From IMG/VR virus record IMGVR_UViG_3300046516_001541, positions 1-64,000 of that record: a stretch of DNA of 64,000 nt; one strand, written 5' to 3'. Under the pieces are notes generated by a model. It was not told where the DNA came from and did not search any database. It was given only the letters and a program-made list of their open reading frames with translations. Position 1 is the first letter of the stretch, and each line of letters opens with the position of its first letter. Shown in pieces: positions 9,206 to 13,546 of the stretch. Source of the DNA: a virus. A program made the position numbers and the translations under genes.

Positions 9206-9808
9206 ATGCTCTGGAGCATGGAACCGCTAGCGGCCCAGGCCCCCACAATTCCCCACTCCTTGGCTGACGAAGGCGCCTACGCCAGTCCGCCGGCTCGGCT
9301 GCATCCCGCCGTGATCGCGCGGCGTCTATTCCTTCTGCCAGAACATGAGCATCTCGGCGTCGGTGAAGCGGCGATCGAATGGCTCCTCAAACGCGATGAG
9401 AAGATCAAAGGCGGCCGGCAGATCCTGGGCACCGCGCATATACCCCGGGTCCAGGGCGAGCTCAATCCGTGTTTCGAATGGCTGCTCGAAAGCCTCTTCG
9501 GCCACGTGCCAGACTTCCTGATCGTCCTCGATCGCAACTTCTGGTTCGGCGCGACGCCGATACAGCGGGAGATTCTGTGCTACCACGAACTCACGCATTG
9601 CATCCATAAAAAGGACGTGTTTGGGGATCCGCTGTATGACGAGAACGATCGGCCGCGCTGGGGTTTGAGGGGTCACGATGTCGAAGAATTCACGTCCGTT
9701 GTCCGGCGATATGGCGCATGGAACGCTGACTTGGAATCCTTCCTCTCGGCAGCTCAGGCGCACGCTACAGACGCACGGCTTGCGTCAATCACTGCAGATC
9801 GCGATTGA
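9206..9808 (+). CDS. Putative phage metallopeptidase, 200 aa
   Basis: A gluzincin-like signature is present: HELTHC (HExxH, about residues 130-134), then GLRGHDVEEF about 25 residues on as the likely third zinc ligand plus conserved acid. This matches the family usually named putative phage metallopeptidase, common beside terminase genes. Starts at 9206 and 9218 (MEPLAAQ) are both possible; GGAG sits only one base before the second. The target is unknown; head maturation and host-protein cleavage are equally open. Confidence 0.75.
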   Translation: MLWSMEPLAAQAPTIPHSLADEGAYASPPARLHPAVIARRLFLLPEHEHLGVGEAAIEWLLKRDEKIKGGRQILGTAHIPRVQGELNPCFEWLLESLFGHVPDFLIVLDRNFWFGATPIQREILCYHELTHCIHKKDVFGDPLYDENDRPRWGLRGHDVEEFTSVVRRYGAWNADLESFLSAAQAHATDARLASITADRD

Positions 9809-10523
9809 ACGGGCGCAGCGCGAGACAGAGCGACTGGAGGCACGGGAGGCCAATCCACTCACGCGATTGACGGCATCCGAATATTTCGATTTGCGCAAAC
9901 AGGTGCGCGTCGACGTCGAGTCATATCTCTTCGAGCATGGTCCGGATGACGTCACGAAAGACATGGTGGCGCGCTGGTGCGGCGAGGCGACCAAAGCCTG
10001 TCTGAAGGACATGGTGAATGGAATCGTCGCCAATGATCCGCCTTCGCCGGAAGTGCTCGAGCGGGCCCGCGCGCGGATCCAACAGAAAATGGGCGACGGT
10101 CTGCACCAGCGCGCGCAGGAAGCGCGTACCAATGGAACGCACGGCATTGCCCAGCATGTGCCCGCGGCGCCTTCACCGTATTACATCGCCAAGCACGGCG
10201 TGGCTGAGCTCGACAAGCTCGACATCTTCGTCGAGTTGAACAAGCTTTTCCACGATGCCAATTTGATGCGCTCCGCGTCGATTCGTGTCGATCCGAATGG
10301 CGTCGAAAAAGTCATGAATCCGCGCACCTTCGACAAGTCGATTTCCAGGCGCCTCGAAATCCTGGCGACCTCGCTCACGACGCAAAAAGAGCTGTGGGAC
10401 CTGCAGCGGATGGAGGCATTCTACGGCACCATCATCGAGACGATCGCCGCCGCGGCGCCGGACGTGGCCCAGGAGATTCAGCGTCGGCTGTCGGTGCTCA
10501 ACATACATGTGGGAATGACGTGA
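9678..10523 (+). CDS. Hypothetical helical protein upstream of terminase, 281 aa
   Basis: The ATG at 9678 has GAGGGG five nt upstream but overlaps the metallopeptidase gene by 131 bp; an ATG at 9712 is the next choice. The protein is mainly helical and charged throughout (IERAQRETERLEAREAN; VLERARARIQQKMGDG) with no membrane segment. Its place just before the large terminase would suit a small terminase or packaging accessory, but no motif supports that. Its stop overlaps the next start as GTGA. Confidence 0.6.
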   Translation: MSKNSRPLSGDMAHGTLTWNPSSRQLRRTLQTHGLRQSLQIAIERAQRETERLEAREANPLTRLTASEYFDLRKQVRVDVESYLFEHGPDDVTKDMVARWCGEATKACLKDMVNGIVANDPPSPEVLERARARIQQKMGDGLHQRAQEARTNGTHGIAQHVPAAPSPYYIAKHGVAELDKLDIFVELNKLFHDANLMRSASIRVDPNGVEKVMNPRTFDKSISRRLEILATSLTTQKELWDLQRMEAFYGTIIETIAAAAPDVAQEIQRRLSVLNIHVGMT

Positions 10524-10690
10524 AATTCATCATTATCGGCAGCATCGTGATGTTCGCCATCGGCTACGCCTGGATGCAGACAGCGAAAAATCAGCTCAAC
10601 ATCAATATCGGATTCGCGATCATGGGAATCGGCTTTGTCGGGATTGGTCTCACGGCAGCCCTTTTTCTGCATTCCGTGGATCTTTTATAA
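10520..10690 (+). CDS. Small two-TM membrane protein, 56 aa (holin candidate)
   Basis: GTG at 10520 overlaps the previous TGA. Two hydrophobic stretches, residues 2-19 (KFIIIGSIVMFAIGYAW) and about 30-52 (IGFAIMGIGFVGIGLTAALF), are joined by a short polar loop. Size and two-helix topology fit a small holin or a membrane anchor. It is far from the spanins and M15 gene, so the holin idea is weak. Confidence 0.6.
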   Translation: MKFIIIGSIVMFAIGYAWMQTAKNQLNINIGFAIMGIGFVGIGLTAALFLHSVDLL

Positions 10691-10706
10691 CAATGAGGAA
10701 ATCAAC

Positions 10707-11276
10707 ATGGTCAAAGTCAAAGAATTGCCGCGATACAAATGTCACAAGGTCGTGCACGCGCTGATGATCAAGGAAGCCACAACAGTTACGCCATGCACTA
10801 TTACACCAGTGGATAACAGATATCCGCCATTCATCGTCGATCCGAAATTGTTTTCACGCTACATGCCATCGCCTGGCGACTACTACGTGGTATATGAAGA
10901 TGGGTATGCCAGCTTCAGCCCCAAAAAAGCCTTCGAGGAAGGCTATGCGCGATTCGAGCCAGCCCCGGTGACGCCGCGGCCCACGATCGCCGAACTGGAA
11001 ACCATTCTCCGAGATACCAATTCGCCGCCAGTCGAAATCACGCCGGCCGGCGAGGTCGTGAATAGCGGACTGCGCGAAAGCATTCGATTCGCGATCAACA
11101 GCACCAACGCCGAGAACGGCAGCAACACGGCGGATTACATCCTGGCCGACTATCTGGTGTCGTGCCTCGCGGCGTTTGATCGGGCTGTCGTCGCGCGAAC
11201 AAGGCATGCACTTCCCAACGCGAATCTTTCGAAGGCGTGGAACGAGGCGAATCAATCGCCAATTGACCTAAAATGA
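10707..11276 (+). CDS. Protein with C-terminal Acb2/Tad1-like hairpin domain, 189 aa
   Basis: GAGGAA lies about 6 nt before the ATG. Residues 1-75 form an N-terminal domain seen in many phage proteins, ending in GDYYVVYEDGYASFSPKKAF. Residues about 119-167 match the Acb2/Tad1-type hairpin family: LRESIRFAINS, then AENGSNTADYILADYLVSC and LAAFDRAVVAR. Characterised Acb2 and Tad1 proteins bind the cyclic nucleotide signals of CBASS and Thoeris and so block abortive immunity. Binding here is inferred from sequence likeness; the usual Pro in SNTPD is Ala in this copy. It may also be a structural or regulatory relative. Confidence 0.65.
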   Translation: MVKVKELPRYKCHKVVHALMIKEATTVTPCTITPVDNRYPPFIVDPKLFSRYMPSPGDYYVVYEDGYASFSPKKAFEEGYARFEPAPVTPRPTIAELETILRDTNSPPVEITPAGEVVNSGLRESIRFAINSTNAENGSNTADYILADYLVSCLAAFDRAVVARTRHALPNANLSKAWNEANQSPIDLK

Positions 11277-11283
11277 ACGACGC

Positions 11284-11520
11284 ATGAGAAAGCTGACGCT
11301 CTACCGTGACGATTCGACGACCCAGGTCGTGTTTGAAAACGTCAAACACTTCTTCTGGACCGCCGGCAATTCGATGCTCTCGATCGCGCAATATACGGAT
11401 CTGGAGACCGGCGAGCATCGATACATCCACTGGCCGCGCGAGCGATTCTGCTGGTTCAAGGATGAACCGCAACCGGATCCGGCGCCTGCGGCGCCGCGCA
11501 AACATGCGTCCGTCAAGTAA
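11284..11520 (+). CDS. Small protein before terminase, 78 aa
   Basis: Starts MRKLTLYRDDSTTQVVFENV, a small beta-rich fold with a Trp-rich middle and a Pro/Ala tail. Overlaps the terminase start by 17 bp. No family recognised; packaging-related by position only. Confidence 0.6.
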   Translation: MRKLTLYRDDSTTQVVFENVKHFFWTAGNSMLSIAQYTDLETGEHRYIHWPRERFCWFKDEPQPDPAPAAPRKHASVK

Positions 11521-13546
11521 GCGGCGATTGCCGGATTACGAGCATGGGCTCAAAATCGCCTTGGGGCGCCTGGAGTCGCGGACCGGCTTCAAGGTCGCGG
11601 CCAAGTCGGTCATTCCGGATGAGATGACGTTCCGCCAATGGTGCGAGCAGCTCGGCGCCGAGGGCATGAAGGTCGACGGCTTCCCATTCAAGTTGTCCGA
11701 TCGGCCGGCGATGCAATGGGTATACGACCAGATCCCGACCACGATCGAGGAAGCCTTCAAGCGCATGCTCGTGATCATGAAGTGTGCCCAGGTCGGGTTC
11801 ACTGTCATGGAAATGCTGGCGGCGATTTACTGCGCGCTCAAGTTTGATCCTTGCAAGGTCGGGCTCTACCTGCCGGATATGAAGTTGGCGTCCGCAAAAT
11901 CCACGGAACGCTTTCTTCCGATCATCCGCAGCATGCCGGTCGCCTATGAGCGGCTGAAGGCCTCGCGCGTTGAGCCGGATGGCACCGAGACGCGCAAGCG
12001 TGGCGAAGGCAATGTCATGATCCGCAGCATGGGGGATAGCCGGTTCCATTTCCTGTGGACGTCTGGCGTGGCGATGACCGAGTCATTCCCGATGGACGTG
12101 GTGACGTTCGATGAAGTGCAGGAAATGGCGCCTGGCGACATCGAGAAGACGCAGGAGCGCCTATCAGCTAGCCGCATGCGCTACACACTGATGGGCTCAA
12201 CCGCGAACTGGCCCGATGCTGATATTCACTTCTGGTATCAGCGCGGGACTCAGCACCAGTTCCATACTGAGTGTCCGACATGCCGCAAGAGCGTGGTACT
12301 CGATGAATACTTTCCGGATTGCATCGGCTACGACGGAACCCTGCAAGAATACCGGTATGTCTGCCAGCACTGCCGCGGGTGGATCGACGATTCCCAACGC
12401 GGCGAATGGCGCGCAAAGAATCCTGACGCACGCTTCGTGAGCCTGCATTTCCCGCAATTCCTCTCCCCGACCATCTCCGCGCGCGACATCATCGAGTCAT
12501 ACAACACCGCGGAGGACATGAAGAATTTCTACAACCGCAAGCTCGGCAAACCGTATACCGATCCCAGTCAGGTCCCGGTCAATCTGGAGATGCTGAACGA
12601 CTGCGCGGCTCGAGGCATGGCCGCCGGCCTGAAATGGAAACAGCGCGCGACGGGCACGTTCATGGGGGTCGACCAGATGGGCGCCTTCAACGTGATCATC
12701 CTCAAAGAGCGCATGCCGGACGGTCATCAGGCGGTCATTCACCTCGAGTACGTATACGACTCGGATCCGTTCCAGCGCACGACTCAGCTGATGGAGCTCT
12801 ATGGCGTCCTTTGTTGCGTCGTCGAGACGCTGCCGAACTACAACGACGCGAAGCGCTTTGCTCAGCGCCACCGCGGCAAAGTGTTTCTAGCGCATTACGG
12901 CGACATAGAAGACGAGATGATGCGCTGGGGCGACATGCCCCGCCTGGGTACGTCCGAGCGGCGGACCAGCGAGGAGGAGCGCGATCGCTATACGGTGAAA
13001 CTGGATCAGTACAAGTGCATGCAGGTCAGCATGGCGCGCTTCCAAAAGGGGCTCTGCCTGTTCCCGGATCCGGCCGGCATCGTGCAGGAGATCATCGATA
13101 AGGGACAGAAAAGGATGTCCCAGGTCTGCAAGGAAATCGCGTTCCTGCACTTCACGAAAACAGCGCTGATCACCGAGAAGGATGACGAGCAGAAGAAATA
13201 CCGGCGCAAGGTCGTCAAGGTCGGTATCGACCCTCACACCAGCTACGCGAACATGCTCTGTGACGTCGCGTGGGCCCGTGCATATGGGACTGGTCAGTTC
13301 ATCCTACCCACAGGCGCTGCCGAATCGAATAAGACGCAGGCGATCGTACAGAAGACGATGCCAGGCCTGCCCAAGCAGGTTGTCGAGATGATTCAGGAGA
13401 CACCGGCCGGCGAGGTCTGCGGCAACTGCACGGCGTTCAATAAGAAGACGGGCCAATGCGCCGAGCGGCAGCTCATTGTGATGGCCCGGGATCCGGGCTG
13501 CATGTTTTTTGTTCAAGCGACCACGCCGCTGCCGCCAGCTCGATAG
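11504..13546 (+). CDS. Terminase large subunit, GpA type, 680 aa
   Basis: DNA-packaging motor and nuclease. The Walker-A-like KCAQVGFT lies near residue 93, as KSARVGYS does in lambda GpA. A Cys4 zinc insertion follows (CPTC near 257, CQHC near 288), typical of GpA. The RNase-H-like nuclease core begins at TFMGVDQMGAF near 388. The C-terminus carries another cluster (CGNC...QC...GC, about 638-665). Start ATG 11504 overlaps the preceding gene; the frame is open further upstream but that part is shadow. Assignment is firm at family level. Confidence 0.9.
   Translation: MRPSSKRRLPDYEHGLKIALGRLESRTGFKVAAKSVIPDEMTFRQWCEQLGAEGMKVDGFPFKLSDRPAMQWVYDQIPTTIEEAFKRMLVIMKCAQVGFTVMEMLAAIYCALKFDPCKVGLYLPDMKLASAKSTERFLPIIRSMPVAYERLKASRVEPDGTETRKRGEGNVMIRSMGDSRFHFLWTSGVAMTESFPMDVVTFDEVQEMAPGDIEKTQERLSASRMRYTLMGSTANWPDADIHFWYQRGTQHQFHTECPTCRKSVVLDEYFPDCIGYDGTLQEYRYVCQHCRGWIDDSQRGEWRAKNPDARFVSLHFPQFLSPTISARDIIESYNTAEDMKNFYNRKLGKPYTDPSQVPVNLEMLNDCAARGMAAGLKWKQRATGTFMGVDQMGAFNVIILKERMPDGHQAVIHLEYVYDSDPFQRTTQLMELYGVLCCVVETLPNYNDAKRFAQRHRGKVFLAHYGDIEDEMMRWGDMPRLGTSERRTSEEERDRYTVKLDQYKCMQVSMARFQKGLCLFPDPAGIVQEIIDKGQKRMSQVCKEIAFLHFTKTALITEKDDEQKKYRRKVVKVGIDPHTSYANMLCDVAWARAYGTGQFILPTGAAESNKTQAIVQKTMPGLPKQVVEMIQETPAGEVCGNCTAFNKKTGQCAERQLIVMARDPGCMFFVQATTPLPPAR

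What the first reader, a model, noticed from the sequence alone, without database searches (positions are those of the whole stretch)
10707..11276. Candidate anti-CBASS/anti-Thoeris sponge domain fused to a phage N-terminal domain
Residues about 119-167 match the Acb2/Tad1 hairpin pattern (LRESIRFAINS...AENGSNTADYILADYL...CLAAFDRAV). Known members sequester cyclic nucleotide immune signals. Here the domain sits at the C-terminus of a longer protein, next to a two-TM protein and the terminase. The characteristic P after SNT is replaced by A.
Basis: partly seen in the sequence, partly recalled or inferred. Interest (0 to 1): 0.75.

Follow-up and report, generated by a model that had tools for sequence, protein, structure and literature searches.

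The report
Two-domain phage protein, possible immune-signal sponge
A virus of bacteria carries a small two-part protein whose tail belongs to an unnamed family common in phages; it is not the Acb2/Tad1 family it was taken for, but its front part is found elsewhere joined to four known families that blunt bacterial antiviral alarm signals, so it is a testable candidate for a new one.

Summary
The ORF is real: window 10707-11276 (+), 189 aa, with an SD sequence. The C-terminal motif is real and conserved, but it is not the Acb2/Tad1 hairpin. PF24729 gives no match to it or to its relatives. A control alignment of PF24729 members finds the solved Acb2, Vs.4 and Tad1 chains, whereas the profile of the window's family finds none, and profile-profile probability is 0.1-0.4%. 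The tail belongs to an unnamed phage family (phrog_18819/phrog_31227, "SNT domain", consensus FRKELExLINRxSxENGSNTPDFILAEYLxxCLxAFDKAVxxREKWYG; 89 distinct ORFs fetched), mostly free-standing proteins of 55-100 aa. The window copy departs at signature positions: P to A in 1 of 75, and W-Y-G missing.

The stronger lead is the N-terminal half ("YCHK domain"), predicted to resemble the phage L decoration protein. In other phages this domain is fused to Tad2-like, Acb4 (PF13876), true Acb2_Tad1_hairpin and Tad5 domains. A second, independent YCHK-SNT fusion exists (L296).

Best reading: a modular phage accessory protein and a candidate member of a new counter-defence (signal sponge) family. Ligand binding and anti-defence activity are untested.

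The parts
10695..10699 (+). Shine-Dalgarno-like GAGGA, 7 nt before the ATG
   Evidence: sequence
10707..11276 (+). Two-domain phage protein, 189 aa (P0001)
   Evidence: homologs of both halves
10719..10955 (+). N-terminal 'YCHK' domain (about residues 5-83), consensus MPRYKCHKxVxALKI...GGYYVVYEDGYxSFSPxxAFEEGY; predicted beta-rich fold resembling phage L decoration protein
   Evidence: phrog_11049 E 2e-18; family of 98 distinct ORFs; AF2 pLDDT 86 and Foldseek PDB top hit 6e3c, probability 1.00, E 1.8e-3
10980..11057 (+). 'TIAELE...PVEITPAGEV' linker module (about residues 92-117); recurs before SNT domains without YCHK and after YCHK without SNT
   Evidence: L015/L217, L016/L218, L031/L219, L131; predicted helix plus short strands
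11061..11207 (+). C-terminal 'SNT' domain (residues 119-167), predicted helix-loop-helix; P to A in the SNTPD motif, WYG absent
   Evidence: phrog_18819 E 3.4e-7, phrog_31227 E 1.4e-5; 75-member column counts; AF2 model with helices at residues 122-132 and 143-168
10520..10690 (+). Upstream 56-aa ORF with two hydrophobic stretches (neighbour, not shown to belong)
   Evidence: no Pfam match above cut-off
11489..13546 (+). Terminase large subunit (neighbour); closest named relatives Aeromonas phage ST4 and Pseudomonas phages Touem01, Dolphis, Jeremy
   Evidence: phrog_675 E 2.3e-86; tblastn

Best explanation
The protein is a modular phage accessory protein made of three shuffled pieces: a decoration-protein-like YCHK domain, a short TIAELE linker and a C-terminal SNT helical-hairpin domain. 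The SNT domain is a family of its own, not Acb2/Tad1. The most likely role is counter-defence. By analogy with the other YCHK fusions (Tad2-like, Acb4, Acb2, Tad5), the SNT domain would oligomerise and bind a nucleotide-type immune signal through its conserved loop (N..S.EN.S.TPD), keeping it from the host effector. The YCHK domain would serve as a shared adaptor or oligomerisation part. Shown: the ORF, both families, the fusions and the absence of PF24729. Inferred: ligand binding, oligomerisation, target system and the role of YCHK.
For: YCHK is fused to Tad2-like PF11195 in four distinct proteins (L013, L119, L184, L189), to Acb4/PF13876 in L009 and L202, to Acb2_Tad1_hairpin PF24729 in L213 (Caulobacter phage Jess A, E 4.5e-17) and to Tad5 PF25190 in L208 (E 1.9e-25); L134 is a further Acb4 fusion by a home-built profile. 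That is 9 of 18 YCHK proteins with a real extension of 45 aa or more. PHROG families 872 and 9467 have the YCHK+Tad2 and YCHK+PF13876 layout. PF13876 was shown to be a CBASS-signal sponge family (PMC11722364). A survey of 399 bacterial genomes gave one strong YCHK hit, and it was a YCHK-PF13876 fusion. Separate Acb4 genes lie near YCHK genes (L014, L164, L175, L184), and Acb2 genes near YCHK (L001, L198) and SNT (L104) genes. A second independent YCHK-SNT fusion exists (L296). SNT is small and carried mainly by phages, and its polar loop is nearly invariant.
Against: No direct evidence of ligand binding or of any defence phenotype. SNT itself has not been seen fused to a known sponge domain; its link to sponges runs only through YCHK. 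One SNT is fused to a topoisomerase-like protein (L027), and half of the YCHK extensions have no known counter-defence domain. The window copy lacks the near-invariant P and the WYG, so it could be altered or decayed. No fold match was found for SNT. The fusion sample is not unbiased. Small accessory domains are shuffled freely in phages, so sharing a partner need not mean sharing a function.
Confidence: 0.4

Rival explanations
1. Virion or capsid accessory protein: the YCHK domain works like the phage L Dec protein and holds the SNT part on the capsid; the SNT part has some other role in the virion.
For: Foldseek PDB top hit for YCHK is the phage L decoration protein 6e3c (probability 1.00, E 1.8e-3, TMq 0.60). 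Some relatives are annotated 'capsid decoration protein'. The window gene lies beside the terminase.
Against: Several YCHK genes in annotated phages lie outside structural clusters (next to primase, SSB, DNA methyltransferase or DNA polymerase genes). The known fusion partners are signal-binding families.
Confidence: 0.22
2. Unrelated early or takeover function: SNT is a general protein-protein or nucleic-acid interaction module of phages, not tied to immune signals.
For: SNT proteins occur in varied contexts and one is fused to a topoisomerase-like protein (L027). Some neighbours are replication genes. No known domain other than that one was found fused directly to SNT.
Against: Two independent fusions to YCHK, whose known partners are mostly anti-Thoeris/CBASS families.
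Confidence: 0.28
3. A very divergent Acb2/Tad1 hairpin.
For: Similar size and a predicted two-helix arrangement. Foldseek lists Tad1 7uav among 28 weak hits with the highest (but low) probability, 0.09.
Against: No PF24729 match. hhalign probability 0.1-0.4%, global score within the range of column-shuffled controls. The R, T and M positions invariant in the PF24729 alignment and its GYR..L start are missing.
Confidence: 0.05
4. A decaying gene: the P and WYG are lost because the SNT part no longer works in this fusion.
For: The window copy departs at positions conserved in 59-74 of 75 members.
Against: The frame is intact, the SD site is good, the rest of the SNT core (N, E-N-G-S-N-T, D, L, C-L, F, R) is kept, and identity to the nearest relative L217 is 71%.
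Confidence: 0.05

Closest known systems
phrog_18819 / phrog_31227 (unknown function), e.g. gp45 of Arthrobacter phage Circum, QXV74222.1 of Rhizobium phage RHEph12
   Same: Same C-terminal domain by sequence
   Different: Those proteins have no YCHK domain; their function is unknown; they keep the TPD proline
YCHK fusions: phrog_872 (YCHK+Tad2-like), phrog_9467 (YCHK+PF13876), Caulobacter phage Jess A gp016 (YCHK+PF24729)
   Same: Same N-terminal domain and overall layout
   Different: The C-terminal domain is a known signal-sponge family rather than SNT
Acb2/Tad1 hairpin (PF24729; Acb2 8ixz, Vs.4 7uq2, Tad1 7uav)
   Same: Small phage helical hairpin; plausible similar role
   Different: No detectable sequence or significant fold relation; key motif residues absent
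Acb4 (PF13876, Phage_gp49_66)
   Same: Known CBASS sponge that shares the YCHK partner
   Different: Different domain; hhalign probability to SNT 1.1%
Phage L decoration protein Dec (6e3c)
   Same: Predicted fold of the YCHK domain
   Different: Only 23% identity; no evidence of capsid binding here

Membership tests
Acb2/Tad1 hairpin (PF24729) | Profile match above the curated cut-off (27 bits) | tested here: not met
   No match for P0001 or relatives; the same profile finds true members elsewhere
Acb2/Tad1 hairpin (PF24729) | Profile-profile or PDB sequence relation to Acb2/Tad1 | tested here: not met
   hhalign 0.1-0.4%; PDB search with A3 finds no Acb2/Tad1, control A2 does
Acb2/Tad1 hairpin (PF24729) | Conserved GYR..L start and R......T......M core | tested here: not met
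   Compare A2 with A3
Acb2/Tad1 hairpin (PF24729) | Two-helix hairpin fold like the solved structures | tested here: inconclusive
   Helix-loop-helix predicted, pTM 0.40; best Tad1 match E 9.3, probability 0.09
Acb2/Tad1 hairpin (PF24729) | Binding of cGAMP, cA3 or gcADPR; hexamer | not testable with these tools
   Needs purified protein
SNT domain (phrog_18819/31227) | Profile match and conserved N..S.ENGS.T.D..LA..L..CL core | tested here: met
SNT domain (phrog_18819/31227) | SNTP proline and C-terminal WYG | tested here: not met
   Window has A and lacks WYG in register; a displaced W after an insertion is possible
YCHK domain (phrog_11049/872) | HK.V.A..I and G.Y.V.Y.DGY.S.SP...FE.GY core | tested here: met
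Nucleotide-signal sponge (functional class) | Sequesters an immune nucleotide signal | not testable with these tools
   Only indirect, by shared fusion partner

The most novel reading that the evidence does not exclude
SNT is an undescribed family of nucleotide-immune-signal sponges widespread in phages. The decoration-protein-like YCHK domain is a common adaptor that phages fuse to many different sponges (Tad2, Acb4, Acb2, Tad5, SNT), and can be used as a bait to find more.
Probability: 0.35. Interest if true: 0.75.

Novelty: new variant of a known kind. Interest (0 to 1): 0.5.

Why it matters
If SNT proteins are sponges, a family seen in 89 distinct fetched ORFs, with no Pfam or NCBIfam match found, becomes a ready set of anti-CBASS/anti-Thoeris candidates. 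The YCHK domain would then point to other unknown sponge families, such as crAss001_48 and the unnamed extensions. If not, the YCHK fusions still raise a testable question: why would a decoration-like fold be attached repeatedly to signal sponges?

Tried and rejected
PF24729 on the protein, its relatives and the whole record: no match. PDB by sequence: nothing relevant. hhalign with small and large alignments: unrelated. L185's C-terminal tail looked SNT-like by eye (GSTPEWLLAHDWI) but scores 1.3 bits, so dropped. RyR and DUF2829 annotations on YCHK relatives: DUF2829 is a separate C-terminal Tad2-like domain, and a protein annotated RyR has no Pfam RyR match. One mixed alignment misaligned the two domains, so the halves were modelled apart. 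Literature: no hit for the motif letters, for PF25190/PF21825/PGDYG or for Tad5. YCHK extension counts exclude L167 and L014, where the profile covered only part of the domain. The rough Fisher value (p about 1e-11 to 1e-14) uses an estimated background gene number and is indicative only.

Full report
OBSERVATION. The ORF at 10707-11276 (+) encodes 189 aa. GAGGA at 10695-10699 lies 7 nt before the ATG. The window is part of a virus record of 80,082 bases. Its terminase is closest to Aeromonas phage ST4 (63% identity) and the Pseudomonas phages Touem01, Dolphis and Jeremy; Dolphis itself carries a gene with the same N-terminal domain.

C-TERMINAL DOMAIN. Residues 119-167 match phrog_18819 (E 3.4e-7) and phrog_31227 (E 1.4e-5), both of unknown function. 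No Pfam or NCBIfam model matches the protein, and no Pfam model matches six relatives even at E<=10. Scans of viral contigs gave up to 110 relatives per scan, and 89 distinct ORFs were recovered. Over 75 aligned members, N14, E19, S22, T24 and D26 are invariant, P25 is present in 74, R47 in 74 and W50 in 70. Most members are free-standing proteins of 55-100 aa. The window copy is the single member with A for P, and it lacks the WYG in register; a displaced W after an insertion is possible.

NOT ACB2/TAD1. PF24729 was run as a positive control and found 7 of 299 genomes. Its members read GYRELSxEExxLMNxxKxxG...R.lslgkTnlqqGfMWavRxvAkP, and their alignment finds the solved Acb2, Vs.4 and Tad1. 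The SNT alignment finds none of them. hhalign gives 0.1-0.4%, against 99.8-100% for split-family controls, and the global score lies within the range of column-shuffled controls. AlphaFold predicts helices at residues 122-132 and 143-168, but with pTM 0.40. Foldseek finds nothing at E<1; Tad1 7uav appears at E 9.3, probability 0.09. This is a faint hint that cannot be used as evidence.

N-TERMINAL DOMAIN. Residues 5-83 belong to a large phage family (phrog_11049, phrog_872), here called YCHK, with 98 distinct ORFs. The AlphaFold model is good (pLDDT 86, pTM 0.72). Its best PDB match is the phage L decoration protein (probability 1.00, E 1.8e-3). Structure matches among viral proteins include ones annotated MazG, RyR and nicotinate ribosyltransferase.

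FUSION PARTNERS OF YCHK. 20 distinct YCHK ORFs have 45 aa or more after the domain; two are profile artefacts (L167, L014). Of the remaining 18, nine carry a known anti-Thoeris or anti-CBASS family. These are Tad2-like in L013, L119, L184 and L189; PF13876 in L009, L202 and, by a home-built profile, L134; Acb2_Tad1_hairpin in L213; and Tad5 at the front of L208, which is also a MazG protein. PF13876 is the family of the tetrameric CBASS sponge Acb4 (PMC11722364). PHROG profiles 872 and 9467 have these two-domain layouts. In a sample of 399 bacterial genomes, the one strong YCHK hit was the PF13876 fusion in L202. Klebsiella phages LASTA and ZX1 carry YCHK with crAss001_48, a family whose role I could not find. 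A second YCHK-SNT fusion, with intact P and W, is L296. Separate Acb4 or Acb2 genes also lie near YCHK genes in several loci, and one Acb2 gene lies beside an SNT gene in L104.

MECHANISM. From this the most likely function is counter-defence by binding a nucleotide immune signal. The SNT loop would be the binding site and the YCHK part an adaptor. Shown: domains, fusions, absence of Acb2/Tad1 membership by sequence. Inferred: everything about ligand, oligomer and target. The decoration-protein resemblance leaves a capsid-tether rival open, and free shuffling of small accessory domains leaves an unrelated function open.

VERDICT. Right gene and right motif; wrong family name; the functional class remains possible on different evidence.

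Noticed in passing
L213:2501-3067 (Caulobacter phage Jess A gp016): YCHK domain fused to a true Acb2_Tad1_hairpin (PF24729, E 4.5e-17), annotated only as hypothetical protein: a likely unrecognised anti-CBASS/Thoeris gene.
   Followed up: partly
L208:2509-3693 (Vibrio phage MAR10, MazG pyrophosphatase): The annotated MazG protein starts with a Tad5 domain (PF25190, E 1.9e-25), followed by a YCHK-like stretch.
   Followed up: partly
L207:3001-3876 and L214:2501-3025 (Klebsiella phages LASTA, ZX1): YCHK fused to crAss001_48 (PF21825); in LASTA with a second domain between them. crAss001_48 may be another counter-defence family.
   Followed up: no
L027:1010-2722: SNT domain at the C-terminus of a protein with a eukaryotic-type topoisomerase I core (PF01028, E 7e-14).
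   Followed up: no
L104:1959-2198 and SNT gene at 2480: A stand-alone Acb2_Tad1_hairpin gene sits just upstream of an SNT gene.
   Followed up: partly
window 10980-11057; L015, L016/L218, L031, L131: Short TIxELExIL...P(V/I)EITPxGEV module that recurs with SNT, with YCHK or inside YCHK (L004, L182).
   Followed up: partly
window 9206-9808: Phage metallopeptidase (PF18894, E 3e-25), while PHROG phrog_513 calls the same protein a transposase: conflicting labels.
   Followed up: no
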